This document shows positions 3,905 to 40,258 of a DNA stretch of 64,000 bases, piece by piece; positions within the stretch are counted from its first letter, which is position 1, and every line of letters starts with the position of its first letter. The position numbers and the translations under genes were made by a program. The notes under the pieces were generated by a model, which was not told the DNA's origin, searched no databases, and saw nothing but the letters and a program-made list of their open reading frames with translations. This DNA comes from Nepenthes gracilis. Lineage: Eukaryota > Streptophyta > Magnoliopsida > Caryophyllales > Nepenthaceae. Location: contig BSYO01000013.1 in NCBI GenBank assembly GCA_033239525.1, positions 9,324,501-9,388,500 of the forward strand, given 5' to 3'.

Positions 3905-4476
3905 TTAGTGGGTGGGGCATTTGTAGGGTGAGTATAATTGAAAGATATCTGAAGAGATTAGGATTAGAAATGTTAATTATTTGATAATGTATTTAGTTCT
4001 CGATTAGTAACTTATAATCTTTATGTTATTGGAACTATTGTCTGTAATTAAACGAATGAAGATGATTTATCTAGTATCAATCTATTTTGGATGTAGTCTA
4101 CTTCAATTTTTGAATTAGACATAACTCTTTCCGTAGAATCCGACGTCACAGTATGGTCGGTGCTCGGAGCCACTTCTGAGTGTGGCAAATTTTTGGTCCC
4201 GTGGTTCGATTAATTAATATTTGAAATAAATATAAACTTGTAAGTTGCGTTTGGAAGTTAATTGAGTCTATTAATTATTAATAAAATGATCTCATTGATA
4301 ATTATTATTTAGGTTTTGTACGGGGACATGACAAGGTGGCCCATACTTTTATTTGTATTGGCTTGACATGAAATATAATCAATTAGTAAAAATATAATAT
4401 TAGTTAATTTTTTTATTATTTGTAATCAGATAATATTTTTAACATTGTAAGTAGTAATTTAAAATTTTAGATTTTA
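3905..4476 (+). repeat. Left 572-bp direct repeat (leader) of element 1
   Basis: Aligned base by base with 10852-11423 without any indel. I count 8 mismatches, about 98.6% identity. It lies directly upstream of the movement protein ORF and contains no coding frame. The repeat does not include the TATA-like promoter, which lies only upstream of the right copy. Confidence 0.93.
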
Positions 4477-4526
4477 ACATCTGTAGAAACTTAGTGATTT
4501 GCATCATTTGTAGAAAAAACTTGAAA

Positions 4527-6512
4527 ATGGCCTCGAGACTAAGACGCATGTTCAGGGGTAGTTCTTCGAATCACAGTACAACCACAAACACTAGAGAAGC
4601 ACTGAGTATACCGAATAATGGTCGAATTATCGCGCCTTGGACTTTGCCCACACAACACATGGAAGAAATCTATCAGATAGGCACTTTTGATTTCAAAACT
4701 GCTTTAGCCATTAAGGATCATGAACAAACACTTTCTATTAAAAATGAATACGAAGAAATTAAATTATCATCCTTGTCTATTGAAAAATTCAAACAACAAG
4801 GATATAATTATATTCACTATGGCTTAATTCAGATAGCAATTAAACCATTAACCAAATTAGGAATTGATACACCAGTTTTACTGTGTTTACGTGATCAAAC
4901 GTTATTAAAATATAAAGATTCTCTTTTAGCAATCGTACAATCTAATTTATGTAATGGACCAATTCACTTTAATTGTGCACCTAACTTTTCAGTTGATCTT
5001 AATGACCCAACTATACTTAATACGTTAGTCCTTAACGTCCATCTTCCTGGTTTAGCTCAACAAGAAAACCGAAGAGGATTTCTAATCCTTTATCGAATCT
5101 ATTTTAAATTACTTACTAGTCAATTTAATCCAAGATGTCTCATTCGAGACTCCACCCGTGAGACAATCGTTTTACAAATAGAAGCAGAAACACGCGCTAC
5201 TTTTACTCCAAAATTATTAAAATGGGATGAAATCACTTTACCACAAGATTGGCAAGTAAATCTTCCACAACCCGCTAGACATATAACCAAAAGAGAATTT
5301 ACAAATATTACTGAAACACCTGAAGGTAATATTATTTTAAATTTTAGTCAACCTCAAAATTATTTACCTAGATCTTTAAGTTATAATCATACTAGATCTC
5401 CATCAATTATTTTTGAACATGATAATTCTAACGAACCAGCTAGAAGATCAATAAATCTTGAAAATTATTCAGAAAATCCTAGAAATGATTATGATACTTC
5501 TAGATTAGCAACAAATACTAGACACTCATCTACGTATTGTCATGATACAAGAAATCTAGAAAGTAGAAACCCTATTCCTGAAATAATTACACAACAAACC
5601 CCACAATCACCAACTCTATCAGAAATGCAAACAATTAATGTTATAACCCTTGAAAGAGAATTTATTCCAGATATGGATACACTTAGAAAAGATTTTATGT
5701 TAGAAAAATATAATAGTGTTAGAAATTGGTTTTTCACCGCATTTACCAAAGAACAAACTGAAGAATATAGAAGTACGTGGAAACAAATAATGAACTTACT
5801 CAAAAAGAATTTACCATTTTTTGAATGGTTCCTTCCTTATGTAAGACATGAGCTTCAACTAGATAAAACTAACAATTCTCAGACTAATATGTCCAATATG
5901 CCTAAAGAAAATAACAATTTGATTAATCAAACTACAAATAAAAATCTTTGGAACAATACTCAATCCACTATGACAAACGACTATAATAATTTAACTAAAA
6001 AACATATAAATCAATCATATATGACACAAAATAATAATTTGACTCATACAAACATAAATATACAATCAAACATGATATGTACTTTAGAAATAAAAACAGA
6101 AAATAAGGAAATTAAGGAAGAATATGATAATGAATGGGAAGAAATGACTGAAGAGAAATTTTATCTAAATCGACTTCTTAATCCAGAAGATAGTGAAGAC
6201 GAAGAAGAAGAAGAAGAAGAAATTACTTTAGAAACAATAATGCATCATAAGTATAGACCAACTAAAACTGTATCAATTATAGATCAATTTGAAAAATATA
6301 CTTCACCGATTATGGAACGAGTTACATTATCTCCATCTGCTTACCAAAGTAAAGTATTATTAAATAAATTAACAAAAAAGATAAATGATTTGACTAAGGC
6401 TCTAAAAGAAAATGACTTGACTAAGTCTCGAAAAGAAAAAGATAACTTAACTAAGAAAACAAGTAAGTTAGATACTTTTCCAACAAACATTAGTCAAACT
6501 ACTAAAATGTAA
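4527..6512 (+). CDS. 30K-superfamily viral movement protein with coat-like C-terminal part
   Basis: The frame is open from 4494, but the start at 4527 (MASRLRRMFRG) is preferred because the second copy at 15906 begins at the matching residue. Residues about 40-260 look like the caulimovirid 30K movement protein, which opens plasmodesmata for cell-to-cell spread: a globular beta-rich region with the conserved Asp in VDLNDPTI followed by LVLNVHLPGL, then YRIYFKLL and NPRC. A polar Asn/Ser-rich linker follows, then a segment ending in PFFEWF that resembles the conserved coat/polyprotein segment of these viruses. After that come a Glu-rich acidic run near 6195-6222 and a basic repeat of DLTK units near 6385-6455. 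The ORF is uninterrupted for over 660 codons and AT-rich like the rest of the element. It ends at a TAA that stays in frame with the next ORF. Confidence 0.78.
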   Translation: MASRLRRMFRGSSSNHSTTTNTREALSIPNNGRIIAPWTLPTQHMEEIYQIGTFDFKTALAIKDHEQTLSIKNEYEEIKLSSLSIEKFKQQGYNYIHYGLIQIAIKPLTKLGIDTPVLLCLRDQTLLKYKDSLLAIVQSNLCNGPIHFNCAPNFSVDLNDPTILNTLVLNVHLPGLAQQENRRGFLILYRIYFKLLTSQFNPRCLIRDSTRETIVLQIEAETRATFTPKLLKWDEITLPQDWQVNLPQPARHITKREFTNITETPEGNIILNFSQPQNYLPRSLSYNHTRSPSIIFEHDNSNEPARRSINLENYSENPRNDYDTSRLATNTRHSSTYCHDTRNLESRNPIPEIITQQTPQSPTLSEMQTINVITLEREFIPDMDTLRKDFMLEKYNSVRNWFFTAFTKEQTEEYRSTWKQIMNLLKKNLPFFEWFLPYVRHELQLDKTNNSQTNMSNMPKENNNLINQTTNKNLWNNTQSTMTNDYNNLTKKHINQSYMTQNNNLTHTNINIQSNMICTLEIKTENKEIKEEYDNEWEEMTEEKFYLNRLLNPEDSEDEEEEEEEITLETIMHHKYRPTKTVSIIDQFEKYTSPIMERVTLSPSAYQSKVLLNKLTKKINDLTKALKENDLTKSRKEKDNLTKKTSKLDTFPTNISQTTKM

Positions 6513-6554
6513 AATCAACAAGAAGAAATTTCGAAAGAATATAGCCAACAAGAA

Positions 6555-7886
6555 ATGATTCGAAACTCTACCAACAATATTAAAAATTCTTCAACTTCCT
6601 TAGAAACTATATCCTTAGCAAATACCAAAACCAAATCAACTACTTTACACCCTGAAAACCAATCCCAAAATATTAATGAAAATTCGTTAATACCCCCTCC
6701 ATTAGCAAAAACATTCAATCCATCATCCTCTTTACTTTCCGAATCCATAAATATTAAAGAACTGTCTTTACCTTTTAATTTACAAATCTCAAAAGATAAA
6801 GAAACTGATAAAGAAAAACCTTTAATACCCTGTCTTACTTTACTTACTCCACCTAAACAAAATCAAACTAAGTTATTAAAAACTAAATGTTGGAAATGTA
6901 AAGAATTTGGACATAAGTCTAAGAAATGTAAATTAAAACAAAAATTAGAAATTAAATCTGATGTAACACTGGAATCAGAACAAAGTTCAAATAAAAATAT
7001 TGTTCAATACATTAAGCCACTTAAACCTAATCAAGTAACATTATCTCTTTGCATCAATCAAAATTATTATCAACTAATTCTTACAGAATTATATGACGAT
7101 AAATTGCAAAACTCATATATTATAAAATTTAATAATATCTTTACTGATATAAAATTATATAATTCAATTATAAATACTTATTTTATCTCCTTATCAAAAA
7201 TTTTACCAAAACAAAAACAAATATTTTCAACATCTACTTTAATTTATCTTGAAGACAGTTCATCTACAAGTTTAGAACTTAAAGAAAACAATAATAACCT
7301 TACGACAGAAAATAACAAACAACTTACTCTGTTAAAAAACAATTACTCTCTAACTCCGACATGGACAAGCGATTATCACACATCTCCGAGAAATATCATA
7401 GAAATTCAATATAATCATCAAAATTATTATAAGATAAGATTTGAAGATATATTAACTAATAATAAATTATCTAATTTATTTATACAATATTATTTTATTT
7501 CTCAAAAAGAATTAGCACAACACAGATATAACATAGTTAAACATAAATATAAAACTCATCTGTTTAAAAATCTAACGAAAATCTCAAAACAATTACAAAT
7601 AACTAATAACATTTTGAAACATCTCCATAATAAAGAAAATCACTTATACAATAAATCAAGTAATACAAAATTAATATTATTTCGTGACATAGAAATAGAA
7701 AAAGAAAAACAATCACGAAATAATCATATTAAAAATATACCACGACCATCTAATCAAAATAACAATAAAAGTCAAATATATCAAAAGTTTAAGAAAATAA
7801 AGAATAAAGAAAAAATAAATATTCTTGAACAATATAAAAAATTAAAATCTTGGCATAATAGTAAAAAACAATGTTATAAAAAATAG
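6555..7886 (+). CDS. Zinc-knuckle (CCHC) protein, coat/gag-like, with an unknown duplicated module
   Basis: 443 codons from the first ATG. The frame is the same as the movement protein and is open from the TAA at 6510-6512, so one stop separates them. A perfect CX2CX4HX4C knuckle lies at residues 112-125 (6888-6929), as in coat or gag proteins that bind viral RNA. Beyond it, where an aspartic protease (DSGA) and RT would be expected, there is a Lys/Asn-rich region with a 25-residue module present twice: 7116-7190 and 7428-7502, 13 of 25 residues identical, each ending YFIS. I do not recognise this module. The ORF ends at a TAG (7884-7886) that again leaves the same frame open downstream. A coat-like nucleic-acid-binding role for the N-terminal half is inferred from the knuckle only. 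Confidence 0.65.
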   Translation: MIRNSTNNIKNSSTSLETISLANTKTKSTTLHPENQSQNINENSLIPPPLAKTFNPSSSLLSESINIKELSLPFNLQISKDKETDKEKPLIPCLTLLTPPKQNQTKLLKTKCWKCKEFGHKSKKCKLKQKLEIKSDVTLESEQSSNKNIVQYIKPLKPNQVTLSLCINQNYYQLILTELYDDKLQNSYIIKFNNIFTDIKLYNSIINTYFISLSKILPKQKQIFSTSTLIYLEDSSSTSLELKENNNNLTTENNKQLTLLKNNYSLTPTWTSDYHTSPRNIIEIQYNHQNYYKIRFEDILTNNKLSNLFIQYYFISQKELAQHRYNIVKHKYKTHLFKNLTKISKQLQITNNILKHLHNKENHLYNKSSNTKLILFRDIEIEKEKQSRNNHIKNIPRPSNQNNNKSQIYQKFKKIKNKEKINILEQYKKLKSWHNSKKQCYKK

Positions 7887-8563
7887 ATTTTAGCTCAACA
7901 AATTAAAAAACAAATAATTAATTACCAGCTCTATAAACACTATCGACAAAATAAACCTAAGTTGTTTCTAAAATTAGTTAGATATTTAAATAAATATTTA
8001 AAAAATCAACAAAACACAATTCTTACTAAAAATTCTAATCACAGATCAAGTAAGTTACTGCAAAGATTTAGAAAACCTTTTAGCTTTAAACCACCATTAA
8101 AGTTTAGATCAACTAAACTAAAATCAATAAAAGTAATACAACAAAAGAATAAAAAACTTAGTACAGAATCTAGCACACAGAATTTAGAACCAATTCTACC
8201 ATCAAAAATAGGTATCAATAAAATAGTTCCCCATAAAGATATACAATACAGACGACCATATACGAAGTTACCTATCTTTAAGGATTCAGTCTCTAGAACA
8301 TTACCATTATATGCATCCAAGTATTTACATACATCATTACATCATTCATTCAAGTATTCTGCATATCTAAACAAAAGAATTTTTTGCATATCAAAAAGCC
8401 AAAATAATTTTATTCATCATCTTGCTTATCAAAACATTCATATTGTTTTACAAAAAGATTTAAAGGATTTTACATCGATCGATGGCAAATCTAATTTTGA
8501 CATTGAAAGTTTTATTGAAGCACATATTTTAGAAAGTTTAATAAACGAATTTTTACAGGAAAT
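7887..8563 (+). CDS. Basic, unassigned open stretch between the zinc-knuckle and unknown ORFs
   Basis: The frame remains open from the TAG at 7884 without an obvious ATG start. The encoded stretch is very rich in Lys, Gln, Asn and Ile and matches no family I know. It lies where protease, RT and RNase H sit in related viruses and shows none of their motifs. The length of the open frame in AT-rich DNA suggests selection or recent arrival. It could be expressed by stop-codon readthrough, reinitiation or not at all. Confidence 0.35.
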
Positions 8564-9936
8564 TATGTCTTTTAAAGGAAAAGAGAAGGACACTTCATCT
8601 CCTTATACTCTAGCCAAGCAAACACCCAAACAGTCTGTTCATAACTATGCAATGTCTAAACCACAGATTATCCCAACTTCAAACAGATTTGCAACCTTAC
8701 ATGAATATCCACCACTTAATTACAAAGAAGCTGTTGCTCCCACTTCCTCATTTACGCAACCAGCTCCTACGCCCCATGATAACCAGTATATCACCAAACC
8801 ACCTAAACTTCATGTTGCTCTAACTTCCTATTACCAAAAACCGTTACTCAATGATCTCATTACCTTGACAAACAAAATGTTTCATCCTAATTGTCTATAT
8901 CAAACTGCGGATATTTCAAAAATCCAACAGTACTATGAATTAATCCTACTTGATTACGGGGTACATTGAAATCAAACATCACCGCAATCCTCAAGACAAT
9001 ACCATTACCTTTTCCACTATCAAAATTAAACACATCAAACTTCCTCAAGATGTTGGACTTAACACTTGGGATATAAAACCTTTTTCTGTTCCTTATCAAC
9101 CTAAAGGATACAATTACCAAGATTACAAAGACGCTTGGTATAATGCTTTTTATCTTCGATCTTATACACATTCCTGGTTTATTCGGTTCGATAAAACCTG
9201 TCCAAAACCATTACCAATATGGTTTACAGAATGGTGGATTTATTTCGGATGCTTACCAGTTCTTTATCCTAGCAATATTAACAATGCAAGAATGCATTAT
9301 GAAGAATTACACAAGGGTATATTCTTACCACATCGAATAATCTGTTTTCATATTGACTATGAAGTTCCATGGATTGTGTCATGGTATTTTACTTGCAATC
9401 AACATTATGAAGACTCACCATTAGCTATTCAAGACATTCCTCTATCGATTGTTCGAGCATTCAGAATCAAATGGTGGGAGAAATTCGACCATATTCTGAT
9501 CGATTACACTCAAATTGATTATGACTATAAAAAGGAACAAACATCAGCTCAGACAATAAAAATTGCCTCAAAAATTTTACCACCTTCACCTACACCAAAA
9601 CCTTATATACCTGATCACCCAGCTGGACCTAGTATCTCAAGGCCCAAAACAAGCAAACCAAGACGTATCGGATCTCCGACTCTATCTGTCTCCTCTAAGC
9701 GATCTGTACGATCTACGCAAGCAAAACAGCAAATGGAAGACCAACAAGCTCAGATAGATACAATGATGAATCAGATGACTCAAATGCATCAACAACTCTC
9801 AAAGCAAGTATCAGACTTCAAGACTCTATGGGCTGACATATCAGATGACGACCCAGCATCAGATTCATCTATACAACCGCTTAGTCCACAGCCGCCATAT
9901 GCCGCCGGTTATGCTCAAGACCCATTCAGTCTCTGA
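8564..9936 (+). pseudogene. Downstream viral ORF of unknown function (frameshifted), element 1
   Basis: The ATG at 8564 (MSFKGKEKD) matches the start of two other copies in this window (about 13802 plus, 23001 minus). The N-terminal part is Pro/Ser/Thr-rich. The middle is a Trp/Tyr-rich globular region with signatures QQYYELIL, WYNAFYLRSYTHSWF, WFTEWWIYFG and IKWWEKF. The C-terminus has an RRIGSPTLS-type linker and a Gln/Met-rich coiled coil (about 9727-9825). Compared with the plus copy in element 2, there is one extra G in the GGGG run at 8957-8960. The upstream frame therefore stops at 8969 and the rest continues in the next frame to 9936. Homologous ORFs are common beside plant caulimovirid sequences but I know of no function. 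Confidence 0.7.
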
Positions 9937-10330
9937 AAGGACTGCTAACATATGTGTTACATTGCAGGTATCCAAATTAATCCTTATGACAAGATAAACA
10001 AGCTTCGCACAAGACATCTTTAAGTTTCTCCATTCAAATATCAACAGCCAAAGCCAAATGAAGAAGTAAATTCAAGAATAGTTACCTACTTCTGGACAAA
10101 GGATCTTTAAGAGACGGACATATGGACCTTTTGGAACTCTAGACAAAATAGTCCATTCCATAAAAATAAAAAAAAATAAAAAAATCTTTTAACAGATAAA
10201 CCTCATTATGCAAGGCACAAAACAGATGCAAAGTTGATGCAACGTACAAGCAAAAAAGGCAGAAACTGCAAAAGCTTCTAACAGAAAGCAAAAGTTTTCA
10301 AAACTTTTCAAAAAGTTTTACTGTGCAATA
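9937..10330 (+). other. Non-coding region between the unknown ORF and the promoter, element 1
   Basis: AT-rich, with an A-rich run near 10167-10190 and purine-rich stretches. No ORF is convincing. By position it is the 3' untranslated/intergenic region of the viral genome. Confidence 0.4.
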
Positions 10331-10380
10331 GCACTATGCAGACACTATTTAGCACTATGCAAACACTATGCAACACTATT
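10331..10380 (+). repeat. Short repeats of CACTATGCA upstream of the viral promoter
   Basis: Five copies of CACTAT, three of them as CACTATGCA, occur within 50 bp about 200-250 bp upstream of the TATA-like box. The placement is like the enhancer region of a pararetroviral promoter. A regulatory role is inferred. Confidence 0.5.
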
Positions 10381-10580
10381 CATCGAAGTGACCAGAAACT
10401 GCCTAACAGAACCGACGAATTCTACGGATGTTTTTAATCATTCCTATGCAAAAGATATGCACTACTGTTGACAAGACGCAAAACGCAAAGATTCCCTGGC
10501 AATTATATGAAGACTTATCAACGGCTCAAATCTATGCAATTATTTCACCAAATCAACGGCCACAGACAATCCAGACCTTC

Positions 10581-10589
10581 TATTTAAAG
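10581..10589 (+). promoter_or_regulatory. TATA-like box of element 1 (tatttaaag)
   Basis: Lies between the last ORF and the right leader repeat, the usual place of the pregenomic RNA promoter in Caulimoviridae. The corresponding spot in element 2 has a stronger tatataagg. A CT-rich tract and a candidate initiator follow. Confidence 0.5.
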
Positions 10590-10851
10590 CCCTTCTCAGC
10601 TTCAGTTGGAGGCAGGTCCAAAATCAGAGGTCCAAAGAACCAGAACGCAGAAAACTCAAGAGCTCTCTCTCCAGCAACCTTGTCCCAGCTTTTCTTATTT
10701 TTCTTTCCCTGTAAATTTCCTTTTCCTTGTACAAATTTCTTTTGTTGTAACCAAGCTCAGACTATGTAAGCACTTCTTCAATCAAAGTCCAGCCGATTAT
10801 TCAGCCTTATTCTGGTATATCTCTGTCTTTCTCTGGTTTACGTGTTACGTG

Positions 10852-11423
10852 TTAGTGGGTGGGGCATTTGTAGGGTGAGTATAATTGAAAGATATCTGAA
10901 GAGATTAGGATTAGAAATGTTAATTATTTGATAATGTATTTAGTTCTCGATTAGTAACTTATAATCTTTATGTTATTGGAACTATTATGCGTAATTAAAC
11001 GAATGAAGATGATTTATCTAGTATCAATCTATTGGGGATGTAGTCTACTTCAATTTTTGAATTAGACATAACTCTTTCCGTAGAATCCGGCGTCACAGTA
11101 TGGTCGGTGCTCGGAGCCACTTCTGAGTGTGGCAAATTTTTGGTCCCGTGGTTCGATTAATTAATATTTGAAATAAATATAAACTTGTAAGGTGCGTTTG
11201 GAAGTTAATTGAGTCTATTAATTATTAATAAAATGATCTCATTGATAATTATTATTTAGGTTTTGTACGGGGACATGACAAGGTGGCCCATACTTTTATT
11301 TGTATTGGTTTGACATGAAATATAATCAATTAGTAAAAATATAATATTAGTTAATTTTTTTATTATTTGTAATCAGATAATATTTTTAACATTGTAAGTA
11401 GTAATTTAAAATTTTAGATTTTA
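10852..11423 (+). repeat. Right 572-bp direct repeat (leader) of element 1
   Basis: Same sequence as 3905-4476 apart from 8 substitutions. It follows the promoter-like region by about 265 bp, as an RNA leader would. A weak Met-tRNA primer-site resemblance (tctggtatat) lies just upstream near 10811. Confidence 0.93.
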
Positions 11424-12320: not shown

Positions 12321-15300
12321 GTAGACTTCCCTCCCTCTCTCTAATGGGTTATCTTTCAGTGATCGTAAGACTGCCTTTTAACTCGAATGGCTTCTATATT
12401 ATTTTTTGTGAAATTTTACACAGAAATCTGTCAGTTGCAGATTAATGTTTTGGCCAGATTAATTAATATGACGATTTCAAATTTCAATTTGGATGCCAGT
12501 TATTGTAGTGAGGCTTTTCATCATGTTAAATTCGGCATTTCTTGGCTTGGCTTCTTCAGTATAACATTTCGGTAAATGGGAAAGCGTTGATGCCTGAGTA
12601 TGGTGGGATAGTGAGAATTTTATATGCTAGCTGGTGCTGAGAAGAATAGGCTTGACTATGGTGATTGGTGACCAAAGTTTCATTGTAGTTTCGTCTGGTT
12701 AATAATATATGATTAAAAGTTCTGTGAAGTGTGAGCTTTGCTAAGGATAGTATTGCTAACAGTAATCACGAATTTATGCTATAAAAGCTGTAAAATTTAC
12801 CCTTTCCATCTCCCGTCGCAACGATATAAGAGGGATGTACAGTATGCAGCAATGTGAGGCCAAATTTAGTAATTTCAGTGACAGCATTTGGTTTTGCTTA
12901 TTACTACCTATTCTGCCGCCCTATATAAATTGCTTTTGGCAAGCGGCAAATTTTTTTGTTGCCAAAGTTATGTTTAACACATACACGCAGGCATTCTTTG
13001 GGTTAATGAACAAGAATTAAGCTTCCCAGTTCTACAAAGAACAAACTAATCACAAACCAATCCATGTATTTGGTTGCTAAGTAGGCAATGCATCTTAGGA
13101 GGTGAGTTGAGCTGTGCATGCAGTTACCATATTTCATATCATTCCTTATTTCTTTGATATTAAAAAAAGGCCAAAAAACCTAATCACTAGCTAGACTAAG
13201 GGATCATTTTATTGAATGATTGACAAAAATAGGTTGACCGGGGCATTTGGTTCCAATTTTTCTGTCAGAAACACTATTCTATCCTCTCCAACCAAATGTA
13301 GACACCATGGCTGCGGTAACAATGCTTCTGTAAATATCAGGGTAAATTCTTCCTCGAATATTGTCATGAACCGTAAACTCCATTACTCCTGGTAAATGGG
13401 TTCCCTCTTAACCGAGCCTCTCAAAGTCAAGGACATACACAGCAACTTGCTTTGAATACCCTGAAAATGATTTTTGGCTTGTGTTCAGATCTGCAGGAAA
13501 CACCAAGCACTATCAGTAATGCCCATTTCCTTTAATCTCCCTTTGGCCAGGATTTTGTCCTTAGATCCCAGCCACATATGAAATGCGTGTTTTCAAATCA
13601 CTTGTCTCCCCAATCAAAGTGGAGCAATTTCACTCTCTACAGTACTTTCCAAGAAGGGGCTTTACGCACTCTTGACATCAAAATTGCTATTTTGAGTTAG
13701 TTTTTGGCTGCATTCACCTGCAGTGAGCATTAAAATGGTAAGACAAATCAGTCGGATTTTGGGCAAACCCTTTTGCAGCAACTTGATCTCTAATAAACAA
13801 AATGCCCTTTCAGGCCCTCCTACACCAACTAAACAATCAGCAAAAGATTATGCAATGCCTATTTCACAGAAAACCATCTAGTATTCAATCAATTCTCCAC
13901 CCTTAGGGATTTTCCACCACTTTCAAAGATGCTGTCCAAACCCACAAATCAGAACAAGCTTTATCTTTCACTGCCACAAAGTCTAATGAAGCTCAGTCCA
14001 ATTACATTACAAAGCCACAAACCCTCCACATAGCCTTGACTGTCCTAATCCAGCAGCCACTACTCAAAGACCTCTTGACCATTAACAAATGGATATTTGA
14101 GGATACCTGCCTCTATCATACCGCTGATTCAACCAAAGCCCAACAATACTATGAATTGATCCTTATTGATTCAGGATGTATTGAACTCAAACATACTGCA
14201 ATCCCCAAGACAATTCTATTGTCTACTCCATATGTAAAATAATGAGAGTAAGGCAACTTGGTGAGATTGCCCTCACTCTCTGGAGTACCAAACACTTTTT
14301 AGTTAATTACTATCCCATTGGTTATGATTGCCAATATTATAAGAATGTTTGGTGTAATGCCTTCTATCTATGCTCCTATAGCCATTCATGTTTCATCAAA
14401 TTTGATAGTAAATGTTCAAAGACTTTGCCAAATTGGTTCACCAAATGGTGGATTTACTTTGACCCAATTCCAGCAATTTATCAATCTAATATCCAGGAGT
14501 CCAAGCTCTTTTGTGAAAAGCTTTGCAAGGATTTTATATTGATTTTGAAATCTGATAGATTATGGCGTGGGCTTTCAATTCTTAACAATTTTATCTAAAC
14601 ATACCATTATCTATAGTTCGAGAATTCAAAGTCAAATGGTGGGAAAAGTTGACTGTCATCAATTTACTCATGCCTACTTGCAAGCATATTTTCAAAATCT
14701 CAAAATTGTCAAAAAGCACTTTGTGAGGTGCCCTGGTAGTTGCCTCCGCCTTCTCAACCAACTCCACCGTCAACTATTACTCCATCTGCTCCTCCAAAAC
14801 CATCCGTGATAGCAGTTCCACCACCAGGTCTGTCCAAGTCCCTAAGCCCATTAGTTATAACTAAGAAATCGTCTGAGAAGGCCCAACTTGGTGACTTTAT
14901 GGCCAAACTATAACAAATTATTCAAAAATTGGCTGATGTCGAGGACTCTTTTGATTCCTCCACACAGCCTCCTAGCTCACTGGCCTCTGATCCCTACGGA
15001 GGCTCCTTTGACTTCTGAGCATTGTCTAAAAAAAAAAAAAAACTCATTTTACCTTTATTTTCCCAAATCTTCAGATTATCAAGTGTTACCCGCAATATAT
15101 TCAAGATGCCATCCGACAACTTCGACATCCCGTGACAGATTAGCAACTATAAAAAATGCTTTACTTTATTTCTACTTTATCCGATATCAATAGTGATTAA
15201 CAATAGTAGCAACAGTATGATGCAACTGTACAAGCATATCTCTCTAGATTTACTTTATCAAAAGAAGATTCCTTTATGGCAGACAAAGGGAATCCTAGCT

Positions 15301-18300
15301 GTTCATCCATGTGAATAAACTATCCATCCACTAGCAAAAGCAGTTCTACCTGCTCCACTATCAACGGTCCAGATGACTCGACAATTAAAGGTCATTAAGC
15401 ATCAAAGGAGTCTATATAAGGAGACTTAAATATTCAAGGAGGGCATTGGTAGAAAAACCAAAAGCCCTGTATAAACAGTGTAAGGCTAAAAACCCTTGTA
15501 TCCATTTTCCAATTACAATCTCTTGTATCCATTTTCCAATTACTGTCTCTTGTATCTATTTTTCAACTACAATTAACAATTGTAAACTCCTTCAATTTAG
15601 TAATAAAAATGGAGTTTTATTCAATTATTGGTACATTTCTTTCTCATTCTCTTTTATTACTATCAAGTATTTGAATTACATGATCCTGTTCTGGCAATTG
15701 GCATCAAAGACACATTTAATTTAATTTCTGCATTCATTACATATTAAATATACTCCATTTGCATCTCACCTAGTGTACCACTAATAAGTCTGGTAAATCC
15801 GTTGGAGCCCATTGCTAGGTGGTCCCGATAATAGGTGTTCCTGTGTGCATTAGTTTTGTGTAAATTGCATTTCATTTAATATTTAGTTGATACATTAATT
15901 ATAAAATGACATCTAGATTCCGAAAGCTACTCAGGGATAGTAGTTCAAATTCTAGTATGATAGCTAATTCAGGAGAGTCTATTCTTATCCCAAATAACAA
16001 AGACTATTCAAGATGGATTATGAAGGGAACTAGCGTCCCAAAGTACACAATAATGTTTCGATCCCGTATAAGATTAGCGGAAGTAATACAAAATTAAATA
16101 TTCAATACACGTAAAGAATATTTGTATCTAGATGTTACGAGCAATACGAGCATGAAAATAAAACACTAATAATAATAATAATAAGACAATCTTTTTGGTG
16201 ACGAAGGAAAAACTCAATACCCGCGGTAATTGAGAAAAACCCTCTGGGGACTAGAGAAGAAATGCACTATGAAAATCAACTTACAGATCGGGTGGTAATA
16301 ATGCGCTAACATAGCCGACTTACTTCCGTCTTGTGATTTATACCAAGGAACTTATTGGATTTGCTCACTGCAATGGAATCAGATGTCTTCCGGTCTTTAC
16401 GTCAATCTTTCCTCTCGAGCCACTTGAATTGCCGAACTCACTGGATCCCAGTGTTCATGCTACCAATATCGCTACGAAGGTTAACCGGCGGGAGAAGAGA
16501 AAGTAAAATGACGGAGAGAAAAGCTTTTTCAATCAAGCACAGAAGATTAGAGCTTTTCCAGTGATATGCACCCCCAAAGATGTTCTAAGCAAGCTAGGCT
16601 TGAAGTTATAAGACATGAATATATAGAAGAGCTCAAAAGAATTCAAAATAAAAAAGAGCCGTTAGACACATAAACTCTGTGCTGCTCGAGTGCTAGATAG
16701 GGTTCAGGAAATGAATCCATGCCGCTTGAGCGGCTATCGAGCGCTCATTAAGCGCTCGGCACGGGAGGTGAGCCTAGATGGCGCCTCGGGCGCCCTTCCC
16801 GGGACGAGGTGAAAAACACGACAGGAAGGCGAGGACACTGATTTCTAATAATGATGACCTTTGAGCATGAAACGAATGAAAATCTTCCAGGCCGATATGT
16901 TGCTGCAGTTACCGAACGCGCCGATATGTGACTAAATAAATTGTCCGACACAGTCACGGAATATGCTAACTAAAAATATGCCTAACAATCTCCCCCTTTG
17001 GCAATTCCGTGACAAAACCCATATAAAAAAAATAAATTACAAGAGAATCATGAGTTCAAACACCACCGAGATAAAATCTGCTTACATGAAAATCTACTCC
17101 TAATAAAAAAATACAAGTAAACATAGAACCCGTGTACATGTAAATGACGCCTTAAGATAATTGACACAGTATAATGAAGTACAAAAAAAGTACAAACTTC
17201 AAAAGCGGCCGCCTGCTGTGCATCAGGGGAGAATAGCGATTTTTGGATAGACATAGTTAGTGCAGAAATAGCAAAAATACAATAGCAGGAGGTAAATATA
17301 CATAAACATAAAAGAAAGATAAAACGAAAACTCCCCTATCAAGAATAACCTCCCCCTATCTCCCCCTCAAAAAAAATAGTAAGACACTTTTCTATGGTAG
17401 AGGTCTACTCCCCCTTTTTGTCATGGATGATCAAATGGTAATGGAGTTCACTCTTCTTGATCCACAATTTCTTGTCACATTTTATGGCGTTGCTTAAATT
17501 TATCACTTGATCATTTAGATGTTGGATGTAGTGAATGAGATGCTCTATCTTAGAGCTTTGCCGAGACTTATTTTGTCGTAATGATATGGGGCAGTGGAGA
17601 CGAATATGGCTAATAATTCTGCATTCATGACATGTTGGAACGAATTTAGCTTGGCTGGCAGAAGTGAATATTAGCTTCCTAGTGTATTTAAGATCGAACT
17701 GTTTCATACTTGTGAAGTTTTGATGGTCTTGTGTATTAGCACTCTTCTTTGGGGAACCTCTGGACAATTTGACAATATGAATAGACGAGGGACTGTTTTG
17801 TCTTAGGAGGAACGTGGGTTGGACAAATATAGTTTTAGAATTACTAGTGGCTTTCAAGTCATTTTCAGAGTAACCCAACCCAGTTTTGTTTCCTCTTATT
17901 TTTCCCAAACTGAGCATATGGTCCAATTTTTTGGAGCCATTTGAAAATTGTTTCAAGTCATTTCGAGAAGCCTCTAGATCAGATTCAAGAGTTGTAATTT
18001 TTTCAGTAAAAGAACTTTTCAAGTTCTCAACTTATTGAACTTTTGTGTCTAACTCGGATTTTAGAGTTAATTTTTCTTTTTCTATTTTAGTCAGTTTGTG
18101 CTTGAGTGACACATTCGTTTTCTTAACTTGAAGGTATTCTTTAAATAAATTGTCATAAACATCCTAAAGGTCATATAGATTAGATTCTGACTCGTTCTCG
18201 GAGTCATTGGATAGATTGAGACTTGCCTCTAAGCGATCATCATTTCAATACATTGAGATTATAAATGCCATATACTTGACAGGGCCATCTTCAGAGCATT

Positions 18301-21300
18301 TTTAAGCCTCTTCTTCTTCGTCATCGCTCAAGGTCACATTAACTTTATAGGCTTGACCTTGTTGGCATTTAGGGTTTGAGCATTCAGCTCGATAATGACC
18401 AAAACCTTTACATTCGTAGCATTGAATACTTTGGGTATTTTTAGATTTAAATTCGCGTCGGCCTTTCTTATCAGATTTTAGAGTTCGTTTTAAATCCAAA
18501 CCTTGTAAGTCATATGAAGATTTATTTTTCTTTAAATTTTTTTTAAAATTTCTAACAAATGTGGTAAAATCTTCATCGCTATTTGACTCCTCATCGGAGT
18601 CACGATCTCTCTCTTCCCTAACGGATTTTAGGACAATTGATTTTTGCTTTCTTAACTATGGAAGTGTGTGCTCATAAGTTTGGAGGGATTTTATAAGTTC
18701 TTCGACCTTCATTTTATCAAGGTCTTTGCTTTCTTCGATAGCGGTGACCTTAGGTCTAAATTATTCAGGGAATGATCTAAGAAATTTTCTAATAATTCTA
18801 TTTTTAGGAATTCGTTCTCCTAAATTAAACGTGAAATTCACAATATCATTTAATTGTATATAGAATTCATCAAATGTCTCATCATTTTTCATTCATATTT
18901 TTTCGAACCTAGTGGTAAGCATTTGTAATTTTGAATTTTTAACTAATTTAGTTCCTCCGTGGGTAATTTCAAGAATGTCCCAAGCTTCTTTTGATGTCTC
19001 ACACATAGAAATGTGCTTAAATTATTCAGGTGACACAGTCATAAATATAACATGTAAACCCTTAGTGTTCTAGTTGCATGCATCAAGTTCATCTTTTGTC
19101 CACGAGGACAAAGCTTTGGGCTTGTCATCACTTTTAGGTGGGGTCCACCTGGTTTGGGTTTTAGTCCACACGCGCTTATCCATAGATTTGAAGAAGGCTT
19201 TCATCCGAACTTTCTAATAGGTATAATTATTCCCATCAAAGAAGGAAGGTACGGAAAGTGAACCACTCGTATATATCTAGATCGGGGGTCGCGGATCGGG
19301 GTATTTCTTTGATACCAATTGAAGGGAACTATCGTCCCAAAGTACATAATAATGTTTCGACCCCGTATAGGATTAGCAGAAGTAGCACAAAATTAAATAT
19401 TTTATACACGTAAAGAATATTTGTATTTAGATATTATGAGTAATACGAGCATGAAAATAAAGTACTAATAATAATAATAAAAAGATAATCTTTTTGGTGA
19501 CGAAGGAAAAATTCGATACCCACGGTAATCAAGAAAAAAAATCTTTCGGGCTTCAAGGCCAGGGAAGAAGTGCACTATGAAAATCAACTTACAGATCGGG
19601 TTGTAACGACGTGCTAATCTAGTCGATTTACTCTTGTCTTGTAATTCTTACCAAGGAACTCTTTGAATTTATTCACAGCAACGGAATCGGACGCTTTCCA
19701 GTCTTCATGTCAATCTTATTGCTTTTCGAAATGAGACCCTACTGGATCCCAGTATTCACGCCACCAACGTTGCTATAAAGTTTAACTGGCGGGAGAAGAG
19801 AAAGTAAAATGAGGGAGAGAAAAACTTTTTCAGTCGAGCACAAAGGTCAGAGTTAAGTTTTCTCAATAATGAGGCACCAAGATTAGGTGCTTTTTCCAGG
19901 GATATGCACCCCCAAAGATGTTCTAAGCAAGCTAGGGTTGATGTTATAAGACATGAATATATAGAAGAGCTCAAAAGGATTCAAAATAAAAAAGAGCCAT
20001 TAGACACATAAACTCTACGCCGCTCAAGCGTTGGATAGGGTTCGGGAAATGAACCTGCGCTGCTCGAGCAGCTATCGGGTGCTCATCGAGCGCCTGATTC
20101 ACAAAAATGCGCCCAGCGGGCGCTCATCAAGCGCCCGACACGGGAGGCGTGCCTAGATGGCGCTTTGGGCAGCCTTCCCGGGTCGAGGTGAAAAACACGG
20201 CAGGAAGGTGAGAACACTGAGATTTGACGATGATGACCTTTGGGCATGATAGAATGAAAATCTTCCAAGCCAATATGTTGCTGCAGTTACCAGACGTGCC
20301 GACACAGGATTAAATAAACTGTCCGACACAGTCACAGAATATGTCAACTAAAAATATACCTAACAGATTATTTCCACTTAACAAATAGAAGAAATTTATG
20401 AGATAGGTGCTTTTGATTTTAAAACTACCTTAATAATTAAAGATCATGAATAAACAATATCAATAAAAAATGAATATGAAGAGATAAGATTATTATCCTC
20501 TTTGTCAATTGATAAGTTTAAACAAAAAAGATACAATTATATTTACTATGGCTTAATTCAAATAGTAATAAAACCTCTAATTAAATTAAGTATAGATACT
20601 CCAGTCTTACTAAGTCTTAGAGACTAAATATTATTAAAATACAAATATTCTATTCTATTAATAGTACAATCAAATTTATGTAATGGACCAATTTATTTTT
20701 ATTGTGCATCAAATTCCTTAGTAGATCTTAAAGATCTTGCTATTCTTAATACTTAGTCTTAAATGTACACAGACCTGGACTGGCCCAGTAAGAAGACCAT
20801 CAGGATTTTCTCATATTATGTCATATCTATTTTAAACTACTAGCAACCCAGTTCAATCCTAAATGTCTTATACAATCACTACCTAGAGAAACTACTGTAC
20901 TCCACATTGAGGCAGATCATGTAACAACTTTTACCCCTAAATTATTAAAATGGAATAAAATTACTCTGCCTGCCAAAGGCATGGTAGATAGATTTTACAC
21001 AACCACCAAAACATGTTACCAGAAGGGAGTTCACAGACATTACTAAAATCCCTGATGGAAATATTGTTTTTAATTTTAGACCGACCCACACTACTATCAA
21101 AACAGGATCATATAATTCAAAAACTTGATAGTAATAAAAGAGAATGAGAAAGAAATGTACCAGTATTTGAATAAAATTAAGTTTTTATTGCTAAATTGAA
21201 GGGGTTTACAATTGCTAATTGTAGTTGGAAAATGGATACAGAGTTTTTAGACTTTGAATATTTATATGTGGATTTAGTTTTTCTGTCGATGTTCTCCTTG

Positions 21301-24300
21301 AATGTTGAAGTCTCTTTATATAGACTCCTTTGTTGCTTCATGACTGTTGATTGTTGAGTCATCTGAATAGTTGATAGTGGAGCATGTGGAATCTGCTTTT
21401 GTTAGTGGATGGATAACTTTTTCACGTGGATGAACAGCTGGGATTCCCTTTATCTGCCATAAAGGATTCTTCTTTTAATAAAGTAAATCTATTAAGATAT
21501 GCTTGTACGGTTGCATCACACTATTGCTATTGTTATTAGTCACTGTTGATTTTGGATAAAGTAGATATGAAGTAAAACATCACTTGGAGTTGCTGATCTA
21601 TCATGGGACTTTGCTGTTGCTGGATGGCATCTTCAACATATTGCAGGTAGCACTTGATAATTTGAAGATCTCGGAAAATAAATGTAAAATGAGTGTTTTT
21701 TTTAGACAATGCTTTGAAGTCAAAGGGGTCCTAAGCAAAGAGGCCTCTGTAGGGATCAAAGGCCAGTGGATTAGGAGGCCGTGTGGAGGAATCAGAAGAA
21801 TCCCGACATCAACCCATTTTGAATAGTTTGCTGTAGTTCGGCTATAAAGTCACCAAGCTGGGCCTTCTCTGACGACTTCTTAGATGTAACCAATGGGCTT
21901 GGGGACTTGGATGGACCTGGTGGCAGAACTTCTATCACGGGTGGTTCCGGAGGAGCTGATGGAGTAGCAGTTGGTGGCGGAGGTGGTTGAGTAGGCGGAG
22001 GCAGCTGCTAAGGCACCTCATGAAGTGCTTGTTTGACAGTCTTGGGACTTTGAAAATATGCTTGCATGTAGACAGGAGTAAATTGATGATGGTCAAACTT
22101 ATCCCACCATCTGACTTTAAACTCTTGAACTCTAGATAATTGTGTGTTTGGATAAAATTGTTGACAACTGAAAACCCATGTCATAATTCATGGGATTTCA
22201 AAATCAATGTAGAAGGTAATTTTTTTTGATAAGGGGGAAACATCGTTGCCAAGTTTTCCATAGTAGAGCCTAGACTCTTGAATATTAGATGGATAAATTG
22301 CCGAGTTGGACCAAAGTAAATCCACCATTTAGTGAACCAATTTGACAAGTCTTTGGACATTTACTATCAAATTTAATGAACCATGAATGGCTGTAGGAGC
22401 GTGGATAGAAGGCATTATGCTGGGTATCCTTATAATCTTGGTAATTATAACTAGTGGGATAGTACTTAATTGAAAAAGGTTTGGTAGTCTAAAGAGTGAG
22501 GGCAGTCTCTCTAGGTTGCCTGACTCTCATTATTTTGCATATTGAATAGACAATAGAATTGTCTTGGGGACTACAATGATGTTTAAGTTCAATGGATCCT
22601 GAATCAATAAGGATCAATTTGTAGTATTATTGGGTTTTGGTTGAATCAGCGGTGTGACAGAGGCATATATCCTCAAAAATTTGTTTGGTAATGGTCAAGA
22701 GGTCTTTGAGCAGCAGTTGCCAGATTAGGGACAATCTTGGCTATGTGGAGGTTTTGTGGCTTGGTGATGTAATTGGATTGAGTTTCATTAGGCTGTGTGG
22801 TAGTGGAAGATGAAGCCTGTTCTGGTTTGTAGGTTTGGACAGTATCTTTGAATGAGAGAGGTGGAAAATCCCTAAGGGTGGAGAATTAATTGGATGCTGG
22901 GATGGTTTTTTGTGGAACAGGCATTGCATAATCTTTTGCTGATTGCTTAGTTAGTGTAAGAGGGCTTGGAAGGGCTGTTTGTTTATTGGGTTTTGATGGC
23001 ATGGTGTTCCTTTAAAAATATCCTTGTTGAAAAATCAGGTAAGGAATTTAAAGTTCCTTTAATGAATTTGATATCAAAATAAAAAATTGATAACATTAAT
23101 TGCCAACGGGAAAAAATTTGTTTTAAAACTAAATTTTTAATATCTTTTTGTAAAACATCTTTTGATACGTTGTAATCAATACGTAAAAATTTTTGTCATA
23201 TAAATCATCATGAAATTTGGATATGCATAAAATAATGGATAAAATCTCGCTTTTGATAGTTGAATTGTTTTTCTGATGGCTAAGCCAAAGTCCTGAATGA
23301 AATTGTATGATTTGGATGCATGCCCTATACTCTAATTGTTGTTTAAGGATACCTTGGTATTCTATGTCGGAGGCATTGTTTTCTACTATCATGAATTCAT
23401 GTGGATGTGATATTCCTAAACAAATAAGGGATTGAACCTGTTGTTTAAGTGTTCTAACGATTATAGTATGCTGATCCGTCTATTGGATCGGGTTCTTTTG
23501 GAGCCTTGGATATAAAGGCTTACGTATTTGTCTAAGCTTGGAGATAAAATCAGTTACATAATTGAGATATCCTAAAAATCTTTGAAGTTTATTTTTATCC
23601 TTAATTTTATCTGGAAACTTGTTAGCAAATTCAATTGATCTTTGAATTGGGGCAATTGTATGCTAATATATGTTAATCATAAAAATCTGATTTTTGTTTG
23701 AAATAATTTTATTTTATCTGCAGGTACAAAATGATCTATTTTGTTTAATAATACTGAGAAATTGGTAAAGATGTTGATAATGTTGATCAACTGTTCTTGG
23801 AAATACTAACACATCATCTATATAGACTATTATGAAGCTAGTATAAGGACTAAATATTTGATTCAGAATATTTTAAAATTCTAATGGTGTGTTCTTCATT
23901 TTGAATGGCATTGTGTTCCATTCATAATATTCAAATGGGACTATGAATGCTGTTTTATATCGATTTTGTTTGTTGATTTGGATTTGCCAAAATTCACTTT
24001 TAATATCAAATTTTAAAAATATGTTTACATTGTATAACCTATTAATTAGGTCTTTTTTATTGGGGATTGGATACATGATCCACTATAATACTTTGTTTAG
24101 TGGCTTATAGTTGATTACTAATATGGGAACACCTTGTTTGAGTTTAGTCAGTTTCATGACATAAAAGGATGGACAACTCTAAGGTGATTTTGATGGTTTA
24201 ATTAATTTTTTTATTTATTAAGTCTTGGTTTTGCCTTTAACAATAATTTATAATTCTTGATTCATTTGAATAGATCTTGCTTTTGTGGGAATTTTGGATT

Positions 24301-38486: not shown

Positions 38487-38736
38487 GGCTTGTAGGAGGT
38501 AGATTCTTTACTTTTCTTTTAAAATTTGTTCGAAAAGATTAGTGCCAATGCCAATGAACAACGCACCAAATGAAGAGCGGGGGGACACAGAGTTCTCTCC
38601 CCGGTAAAGATAAACATGTTTTGGGACAGGTTGGTGTTATTTCGTTCTGGCTTATTGCTCAATTTTACTCTGCTTTATAGTGGATGAGAGTAGATAGTGC
38701 CACACATCTCTCTGTACCGGTGCTTTTGTCTCATTA

Positions 38737-40258
38737 TACTAGAGAGTTTCATTTTTCCCCATGATCTTTGTACATATGGTTTTCACTTCAAACCGCTTTG
38801 GCTCGTGATTGTTGCCTGATGTTCCTATAAACCTTACAATTTGGATGGATCGCAAGTTTGTGCAAATTCCATCCATGGCTACTATTGTTTCCTGAATATT
38901 ACTCGATTGCTGGCTTATTTTCTAGGGTATGATCTATTTTTGGTTGAAGTAAAACGTTATGCCACAATATTTGCTTGTGAACATTACGGCTTGGATGGTT
39001 GCTCCGTTGTTTGTGCAAATGCCGGGCATGGTAGAAATTTTGTATTATGTGAAATCCTTTTGCTGCTCTCATGTACATGCTTACCTCAAGTTCTGTGGTA
39101 TGACCTGTTGTCGGGAAAGTAGAAATTTGGTATTACTTTACATGGCAAAAATGCATAAACGAAATCAAACCAAACTAATCAACCCCAAGGCCATTTCCCA
39201 CCCAGTGTGCAGGAGCTTTCGACGATAAAAATGCAGGTTGAATCGGTGGAAATGCTACCAAAACTCAGTAAAACACAAAACTGCTAGTTCCTTGGAACAA
39301 TGTAACTCCAAATTGAGGGAGACTGCAGCTGCCGAAACAGCCTTTTTTTGACCTATGGTTACTGGGTGCGCTGCAAAAGCAGCTTTGAACTCCTTGTCAG
39401 GTGCAGATAGTTAAGATTTCAAGTAAAAGATAAAGTATAATTATATCTTTAATTTTTTAAAAATGTCTTATTTAATTATATCTTTAAAAGTCTTATTTTA
39501 TTTAATAGCCAGACATCGGGCCAGGAAGCAATTCTTGTTGCAGCTGTTACGAATATTCCTTGCTCTTACAATTCTCATTTTTTTTTTTTTAAATGATGTA
39601 ACTATCATAAACCTCATCCATTTATTGTTTTATGGTATTTGGTTATGAGCCGTAGATCGAGGAAAGTGTCAGATTTGAAAACTTAGGAAGTCAAGAAAAT
39701 ATAGGAATGAATAATTACACATTTTGATAACTCAATGTCATATAATAATTAATATCTCTTCAAAGTCAATGAGGTAAAATAGATGCTAACTTAAGTTTGA
39801 AAATCAAATTATAAATGCACATCCACCGAAGAGATGAAGATATGAAGTTAACGAGAGGCCGATTGGAGAATATAGCAAAGATTGAAAATTATGGGCAGTA
39901 TCAATGAATTCTATGGCAAATACATGTAAAGAATCACCACTACCACATGAAAAATCAATTGGGGATGATGCGTGAAGGAAGGTAATGGTCGTCCTTTTCA
40001 ATGACCGGACGGAGAACTGTTATTTCAATGACTAAAATGGAGGTGGGTAGTCGTCTTTTTAAACAATTAGATAAAAAGTCGTCTATTTTAATAATAAAAA
40101 AACGAAAGGCATCTATTTAAATAACTAAATATAAATGACTGAAATTATATGTATGTTAAATGCTATGATTGATGCATACGAAAATTACATCTCAACTGTA
40201 TTATTGATGTAATAAAGTGTATCCTTGGAAGATGAGAAAATATGAAAATAAATAATTT
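38737..40258. repeat. 1.5-kb tandem duplication, copy 1
   Basis: Starts actagagagtttcat in the 3' flank of the gamma-CA gene and recurs with an offset of 1522 bp. Identity is high (only scattered substitutions and small indels). No gene recognised in it. Small minus-strand ORFs near 39804-40001 exist in both copies but look fortuitous. Confidence 0.92.

What the first reader, a model, noticed from the sequence alone, without database searches (positions are those of the whole stretch)
3905..11423. RT-less pararetroviral element with nearly intact ORFs
Element 1 has a viral movement protein of over 660 codons, a zinc-knuckle ORF and the conserved unknown ORF, but nothing resembling protease, RT or RNase H. 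In place of these enzymes about 1.6 kb of frame is open and codes for unrecognised sequence, so this is not a simple deletion. Florendoviruses are the group where bipartite genomes have been proposed, and element 2 next door keeps RT/RNase H. Element 1 may be the non-replicase component of a two-part virus, or a satellite-like passenger that borrows the enzymes in trans.
Basis: partly seen in the sequence, partly recalled or inferred. Interest (0 to 1): 0.88.

Follow-up and report, generated by a model that had tools for sequence, protein, structure and literature searches.

The report
Half of a two-part plant pararetrovirus
This stretch of plant DNA is an inserted, partly decayed copy of what looks like one half of a two-part plant virus: it carries the cell-to-cell movement gene but no reverse transcriptase, while a partner molecule found elsewhere in the same genome carries the replication enzymes, lacks the movement gene and seems to have picked up a plant F-box gene.

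Summary
Element 1 is real, but its viral part is 4477-10851; 3905-4476 and 10852-11423 are a 572-bp duplication, probably of host DNA. It belongs to a dispersed RT-less lineage. The ORF standing before the missing enzymes has 101 matches in the host genome (itself and pieces included); 53 of 101 are followed by the same downstream gene, 0 of 101 by RNase H. Two divergent copies keep movement protein, zinc knuckle, linker and C-terminal gene in one open frame (1728 and 1759 codons). The linker retains an RNase H remnant, so the lineage began by internal deletion.

An RT-bearing partner exists: coat domain, protease, RT, RNase H, no movement-protein core, and the same promoter region (86-93% over 562 bases). 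That region groups by lineage, not by component, and on one contig both types lie inside one duplication. This matches component B of bipartite florendoviruses (Geering 2014), so the kind is known. Apparently new: a sharper division of genes, and a partner whose second ORF is F-box-like, while the usual-type ORF2 sits on the RT-less molecule. Not tested: reference RT phylogeny, transcripts, particles.

The parts
3905..4476 (.). left copy of a 572-bp direct repeat, read as duplicated host target DNA
   Evidence: 98.6% identical to 10852-11423, 8 mismatches; in related loci only short matches of 36-63 bp
4477..4529 (+). remnant of the viral leader before the movement-protein start
   Evidence: 94-98% identical in L011, L013, L014 and 98% in the RT-bearing copy L034
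4530..6512 (+). movement-protein part of the long frame (MP domain 4683-5120, DUF7588 5673-5849)
   Evidence: Pfam MP 1e-16 and DUF7588 3.4e-14; dN/dS median 0.33 over 91 pairs of copies
6555..7886 (+). ORFb: zinc-knuckle part (knuckle at 6879-6956) followed by fast-evolving Asn/Lys-rich sequence
   Evidence: zf-CCHC_6 2e-4, just under cut-off; aligns with the zinc knuckle of the RT-bearing partner (hhalign 95.5%); 101 matches in the host genome, itself included
7887..8564 (+). linker X standing where protease, RT and most of RNase H would be
   Evidence: open in frame; present in order in 11 of 20 fetched loci; no codon-position bias
8379..8492 (+). remnant of the C-terminal part of RNase H
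   Evidence: hhalign against residues 578-624 of the partner's pol frame, score 31.2 versus a shuffled maximum of 22.8
8565..9936 (+). C-terminal gene U (U1 8565-8969, U2 8950-9936), the ORF of unknown function; frame change within 8950-8969 in this copy
   Evidence: dN/dS median 0.22 for each part; fused in frame to the rest in L012 and L014
9937..10851 (+). intergenic region; in the loci read, the first 353 bases occur with RT-less copies only
   Evidence: own-genome DNA search and loci
10290..10851 (+). common region shared with RT-bearing copies, with TATTTAAA at 10581-10588
   Evidence: 86-93% identity to four RT-bearing copies; alignment of seven copies
10852..11423 (.). right copy of the 572-bp duplication
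23132..24082 (-). element 2: RNase H (23132-23479) and RT (23876-24082) remnants
   Evidence: RT_RNaseH_2 8.7e-14, RVT_1 2.8e-7
22089..22987 (-). element 2: U-type ORF remnant next to RNase H
   Evidence: 39-55% identity to U pieces of element 1, one 15-residue piece 73%

Best explanation
Element 1 is an integrated, lightly decayed copy of the RT-less molecule (component B) of a two-part, florendovirus-type plant pararetrovirus. Shown by sequence: B codes one long frame (movement protein, DUF7588, zinc knuckle, linker, U); a second molecule (component A) codes DUF7588, DUF7746, coat domain, zinc knuckle, protease, RT, RNase H and an F-box-like ORF2 but lacks the movement-protein core in the copies read; both share the promoter region, leader and the start of the frame. 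Inferred: B is transcribed from the shared promoter, packaged and reverse transcribed by A's proteins because it carries the same primer site and leader, and in return supplies movement protein and U. The two arose by complementary deletions from a one-part ancestor. Integration was by host break repair, leaving a 572-bp target duplication and losing the part of the leader that holds the primer site.
For: Dispersed RT-less layout: 101 matches of ORFb, 53 of 101 followed by U, 38 of these at 1.03-1.33 kb, and 0 of 101 by RNase H; 11 of 20 fetched loci have movement protein, ORFb, X and at least the first part of U in order on one strand. Open frames of 1759 and 1728 codons in L012 and L014. Purifying selection: median dN/dS 0.22 for U2, 0.33 for MP, third-position excess between divergent copies. 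Partner L031: RVT_1 6.7e-36, RNase H 1.7e-24, protease 3.7e-9, coat domain 2.7e-8. Movement-protein core absent from 4 of 4 close partner 5' ends read (L014, L019, L031, L034). Shared region: 93, 91, 87 and 86% in L031, L033, L032, L034 over up to 562 bases; leader 98% in L034; primer site upstream of MP in relatives. Tree of the shared region: the labels A and B need 7 changes (one would mean two clean groups), and rows of the same locus are neighbours. 26 of 101 ORFb hits have RNase H within 10 kb, random expectation 0.004 per hit. On C4 an A followed by a B lies inside one 367-bp duplication at 98.9%. RNase H remnant in X.
Against: No protease was found in B, although the Vitis component B is described with one. 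X shows no codon-position bias and ORFb little; the closest pair, element 1 and L013, shows no constraint in ORFb (dN 0.012, dS 0.008). Only 562 of the 915 intergenic bases are shared with A. The start of the frame is less alike between A and B (59% identical residues in L034) than the leader. Compound loci gather in virus-rich regions, so adjacency is partly expected, and gene conversion inside them could make shared regions alike. No virion, episome or transcript was examined and no published florendovirus sequence was at hand; searches of outside collections found no relatives. Complete one-part copies were not sought properly.
Confidence: 0.86

Rival explanations
1. A satellite or defective passenger: the RT-less molecule borrowed RT from a self-sufficient virus and was not needed by it.
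For: It lacks protease, RT and most of RNase H; RT-bearing copies with U after RNase H exist (2 of 150 RNase H hits, and element 2), so one-part relatives may have been around; they were not sought properly.
Against: The close RT-bearing partner lacks the movement-protein core in 4 of 4 5' ends read and its ORF2 is not U (55 of 150 RNase H hits are followed by the F-box-like ORF, 2 of 150 by U), so each lacks what the other has; MP and U in B are under purifying selection.
Confidence: 0.09
2. One larger virus genome (about 13 kb) with both gene sets in tandem and two intergenic regions; element 1 is a piece of it.
For: A followed by B in one insertion on C4; A/B joints also in L018 and L019.
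Against: Element 1 is B alone, near unit length, inside its own duplication; L012 shows B without A-specific pieces in 9.9 kb; the two spans, about 6.3-6.4 kb each without the primer-site gap, fit the 5.5-6.9 kb reported for bipartite components.
Confidence: 0.03
3. A single deletion copy multiplied by host duplication and not by virus replication.
For: X retains an RNase H remnant, so a deletion happened; some copies cluster, as on C37 and C9.
Against: Matches on many contigs at widely differing identity, low dN/dS for MP and U between divergent copies, two long frames open in divergent copies. After masking, the flanks of 24 loci and element 1 share leader stretches, repeats within one locus, matches inside the L027-L029 group and two others (L017 with L026, L030 with L032), but no common host flank.
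Confidence: 0.02

Closest known systems
Component B of bipartite florendoviruses (Vitis vinifera B and D virus, Oryza sativa B virus, Sorghum bicolor virus; Geering et al. 2014, PMC4241990, passages seen)
   Same: Movement protein and zinc-finger region kept, RT and N-terminal RNase H lost, C-terminal extension fused in frame, size range, intergenic region largely shared with an RT-bearing component, compound A/B insertions.
   Different: No protease detected here; long frame decayed into pieces in this copy; the C-terminal gene is not the ORF2 of the close RT-bearing partner.
Component A of bipartite florendoviruses (same passages)
   Same: Protease, RT, RNase H, then a second ORF; N-terminal part of ORF1 shortened.
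   Different: Here it keeps a coat domain and loses the movement-protein core, and its second ORF is F-box-like and not a detectable relative of U.
One-part florendoviruses (e.g. Lotus japonicus A virus, same passages)
   Same: Domain order MP, coat with zinc finger, protease, RT, RNase H, then an ORF of unknown function; U follows RNase H in element 2 and in 2 of 150 RNase H hits.
   Different: Element 1 lacks the enzymes; no complete one-part copy was seen, but none was sought properly.
Component B consensus of Vitis D virus as found by CAULIFINDER (PMC9719215, passages)
   Same: Only movement protein and zinc finger recognisable, as here.

Membership tests
Bipartite florendovirus component B | movement-protein domain | tested here: met
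   PF01107 1e-16
Bipartite florendovirus component B | coat region with zinc finger | tested here: inconclusive
   zinc knuckle just under the cut-off, aligned with the partner's; coat domain PF22909 not found in element 1
Bipartite florendovirus component B | aspartic protease domain | tested here: not met
   no Pfam match, no hhalign match of ORFb to the partner's pol frame and of X only to its RNase H; CAULIFINDER too detected only MP and zinc finger in one Vitis component B
Bipartite florendovirus component B | RT and N-terminal RNase H missing, C-terminal RNase H kept | tested here: met
   the remnant is short (38 aligned columns)
Bipartite florendovirus component B | single long polyprotein frame with C-terminal extension related to ORF2 | tested here: inconclusive
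   frame met in L012 and L014, decayed in element 1; U also follows RNase H in element 2 and two other loci; relation to published ORF2 sequences not tested
Bipartite florendovirus component B | intergenic region over 90% identical to a component A | tested here: met
   over the 562 shared of 915 bases only: 93 and 91% with L031 and L033; 87 and 86% with L032 and L034
Bipartite florendovirus component B | movement-protein domain over 87% identical to a component A | tested here: not met
   the four close A-type 5' ends read have no movement-protein core, so there is nothing to compare
Genus Florendovirus | RT-RNase H groups with florendoviruses in a tree | not testable with these tools
Caulimoviridae in general | tRNA-Met primer site and MP, coat, protease, RT, RNase H set | tested here: met
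   over A and B together; element 1 itself has no primer site with up to 2 mismatches outside the coding region
LTR retrotransposon | repeat ends belong to the element and recur in other copies | tested here: not met
   only 36-63 bp of the 572-bp repeat match elsewhere among the loci read

The most novel reading that the evidence does not exclude
A pararetrovirus whose genome is divided with little overlap: movement protein and the ancestral-type ORF2 on one molecule, coat and enzymes on the other, held together by a shared control region of about 1 kb, and in which the freed ORF2 slot of the enzyme molecule was refilled by a captured plant F-box/beta-propeller gene that then evolved under purifying selection.
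Probability: 0.6. Interest if true: 0.78.

Novelty: new variant of a known kind. Interest (0 to 1): 0.66.

Why it matters
According to the passages read, divided genomes are not known from living Caulimoviridae or elsewhere in Ortervirales, and the claim for florendoviruses rests on a few plants: Vitis, Oryza, Sorghum and Beta. This genome gives a further case together with its partner. The division of labour is sharper, the shared control region stays alike lineage by lineage, and both molecules were caught inside one insertion. It also suggests how a split can free a gene slot for a captured host gene, here F-box-like, a kind of protein that a few other plant viruses use against host defences (recalled, no call).

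Tried and rejected
Rejected: LTR element. Rejected: element 2 as the close partner (its U pieces are 37-55% identical, one 15-residue piece 73%). Rejected: the sequence between zinc knuckle and U as chance open frame, though X shows no codon-position bias. Rejected: U as a detectable homologue of the partner's ORF2. I first took L027-L029 for RT-bearing because of the gap between MP and U; Pfam on eight of their frames found no RT, and element 2's RT and RNase H pieces match them nowhere better than E 0.25. Without result: three protein-database searches (6555-7886; 8950-9936; partner ORF2), two scans of viral contigs, PDB, a one-part copy at C10 (coat piece only, no movement protein in the 3.5 kb read). 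The dN/dS values are NG86 on star alignments and crude at high dS; the shared-region tree has 24 rows, two of them the same stretch of C4 read from overlapping loci, and its bootstrap had not settled.
Full report
What is there. The window lies in a 752.5-Mb genome (G000:C13:9324501-9388500), taken to be a plant from its content. Element 1 proper is 4477-10851 (6375 bases). It is bracketed by a 572-bp direct repeat, 3905-4476 and 10852-11423, with 8 mismatches. Among related loci only 36 to 63 bp of it match (one of 20 loci; L031), so it is best read as a host target duplicated at insertion. With substitution rates recalled from memory (2.5e-9 to 1.5e-8 per site and year) the divergence gives roughly 0.5 to 2.8 million years.

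Gene content. The first ORF has the Pfam movement-protein and DUF7588 domains; the second a zinc knuckle just under its cut-off; no RT, protease or coat domain was found. The longest open stretches exceed everything in 200 dinucleotide shuffles of each segment. The movement ORF, the zinc-knuckle ORF and the stretch up to 8969 are in one frame with two internal stops; the last part is in another frame. In two copies on other contigs, L012 and L014, the span is a single open frame of 1759 and 1728 codons. So the ORFs of element 1 are one decayed long gene.

Many copies of the RT-less plan. ORFb (6555-7886) has 101 matches in the genome, itself included (95 of 524 candidates scored; some matches are pieces of one copy; identity 100% down to 40%). 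By coordinates, 53 of 101 have a U match downstream on the same strand within 4 kb, 38 of these at 1.03-1.33 kb, on 21 contigs; 0 of 101 have an RNase H match there (the RNase H list is 150 of 409 candidates; the U list 121 of the 128 rows). Of 20 loci of 9.9 kb read directly, 11 (L011-L019, L021, L022) have movement protein, ORFb, X and at least the first part of U in order on one strand; RT, RNase H and protease pieces, where present, lie outside that span. The other nine are truncated, rearranged or, for L027-L029, belong to a more distant group in which eight frames scanned gave no RT.

Selection. Medians of dN/dS between copies: U2 0.22 (55 pairs), U1 0.22 (66), MP 0.33 (91), ORFb 0.58 (91), X 0.56 (78). 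Single pairs vary; element 1 and L013 show no constraint in ORFb (dN 0.012, dS 0.008). MP, U1 and U2 show an excess of third-position changes between divergent copies, ORFb little, X none, and the close pair element 1-L013 none in U. I read this as real constraint on MP and U, and X mainly as a linker that must stay open because U is fused behind it (inference).

Where the layout came from. X residues 165-202 align with the C-terminal part of the partner's RNase H: hhalign score 31.2, E 0.0021, probability only 13.5%, while 100 column-shuffled profiles reached at most 22.8; with both sides cut to their C-terminal parts, E 5.9e-5 and probability 65%. The deletion therefore removed protease, RT and the front of RNase H. 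Geering et al. report the same for component B as to RT and RNase H (passages).

The partner. The intergenic DNA of element 1 has 48 matches (40 of 171 candidates scored). Several match only bases 354-915 and lie near RNase H matches. Four were read: L031 (C4), L032 (C7), L033 (C32), L034 (C1). Each holds protease, RT and RNase H pieces and the shared region at 93, 87, 91 and 86%, with an ORF of about 400 codons between, unbroken in L031 and L034. Pfam: RVT_1 6.7e-36 in L031 and 2.2e-35 in L034, RNase H in both, protease in L031, DUF7588 and DUF7746 in L034, coat domain 2.7e-8 in L031 and 1.4e-5 (under its cut-off) in L034, zinc knuckles slightly under the cut-off. The 5' ends of four close A-type copies (L014, L019, L031, L034) run from about the first 50 codons straight to DUF7588, without the movement-protein core (L031 starts at residue 27 of the L034 frame); a divergent one in L029 may have the same plan (35% identity). 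The 53-base leader is 98% identical between L034 and element 1 and 98% over 49 bases in the A copy of L014, 81% in that of L019. The primer site stands upstream of the movement protein in relatives, some with one mismatch; element 1 was opened there and lacks it.

Linkage of A and B. A tree of the shared region has 24 rows: 10 A (two of them the same C4 stretch), 8 B, 6 unlabelled, labelled by the ORF upstream. The labels need 7 changes, no fewer than shuffled labels, while rows of the same locus are neighbours in L014, L018 and C4, and L033 (A) with L021 (B), both on C32. The region thus follows the lineage, not the component; gene conversion inside compound loci is another possible cause. 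TATTTAAA is in all seven rows aligned. 26 of 101 ORFb matches have RNase H within 10 kb in any orientation, against 0.004 per match at random, although both kinds gather in virus-rich regions. On C4 an A copy is followed by a B copy and the pair is enclosed by a 367-bp direct repeat at 98.9%; on C7 an A with B fragments is enclosed by 629 bp at 98.9%.

The F-box surprise. The partner's ORF2 shows no relation to U (BLASTP E 1.1; hhalign). It matches the F-box domain above the cut-off in L032 (21.5) and L025 (21.8) and below it in L031, L033 and L034; the pieces of L026 and L029 start behind that domain, and L026 matches the beta-propeller family of F-box protein At3g26010 (1.2e-3, below its cut-off), which the other six pieces did not. 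55 of 150 RNase H matches are followed by this ORF, most often after 152 bases, 2 of 150 by U. dN/dS is 0.17 between L031 and L034, 0.40-0.55 in pairs with the broken L032 and L033, median 0.28 over 59 pairs, some with L035-L037. Full-length matches at 35-40% with none of my viral probes nearby exist (L035-L037); L037 passes the cut-off of the beta-propeller family, L035 and L036 match F-box weakly. They may be the host family from which it was taken, or old viral copies; I did not settle which.

Known or new. RT-less components of this plan are described by Geering et al. 2014 (passages), in a review (PMC10377300, passages) and in CAULIFINDER (PMC9719215, passages). Searches for Caulimoviridae with F-box (9 papers), endogenous pararetrovirus with F-box (4), florendovirus with gene capture (0) and a mixed query (16, 8 listed) listed no title or abstract on an F-box gene in such a virus; one hit was opened and was about host genes. 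F-box does not occur in the main text of Geering et al.. That covers open-licence papers only. Filing: works like, and probably is, a component B of a bipartite florendovirus-type virus; formal membership stays open because no reference RT could be compared and two described features (protease; movement protein shared with A) are not met.

Noticed in passing
L031:868-2076, L034:1043-2233, L032:5847-7054, L025, L026 (partner copies): The RT-bearing partner's ORF2 is F-box-like (one truncated copy beta-propeller-like) and not the U-type ORF; dN/dS suggests purifying selection.
   Followed up: partly
window 3905-11423 and 13376-26369; C4 22898900-22912700; L032; L028: Insertions enclosed by unusually long direct repeats of host-like DNA: 572 bp (98.6%), about 404 bp (91.6%), 367 bp (98.9%), 629 bp (98.9%), 519 bp (97.5%). 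This suggests break repair with long duplicated ends. Direct repeats in other loci lie in viral sequence or were not resolved, and many borders are outside the DNA held.
   Followed up: partly
window 13376-26369: Element 2 is a nested or rearranged locus: U-type sequence in both orientations, movement-protein remnant, zinc-knuckle ORF, RT and RNase H remnants with U close after RNase H, i.e. an RT-bearing type that kept U.
   Followed up: partly
L027, L028, L029: A second, more distant group without detected RT (MP 57-66% identity; U 35-43% in L028 and L029), suggesting that the two-part state may be old.
   Followed up: partly
C6:8804576-8805709, C20:7345434-7346567, C24:2708225-2709382 (L035-L037); more at C6:8780686-8842864: Open ORFs of 384-547 codons resembling the partner's ORF2, with none of my viral probes matching in the 3.5-4 kb read: host F-box genes or viral genes taken over by the host.
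   Followed up: partly
window 38734-41734: A tandem pair of about 1.48-kb repeats at 95% identity.
   Followed up: no
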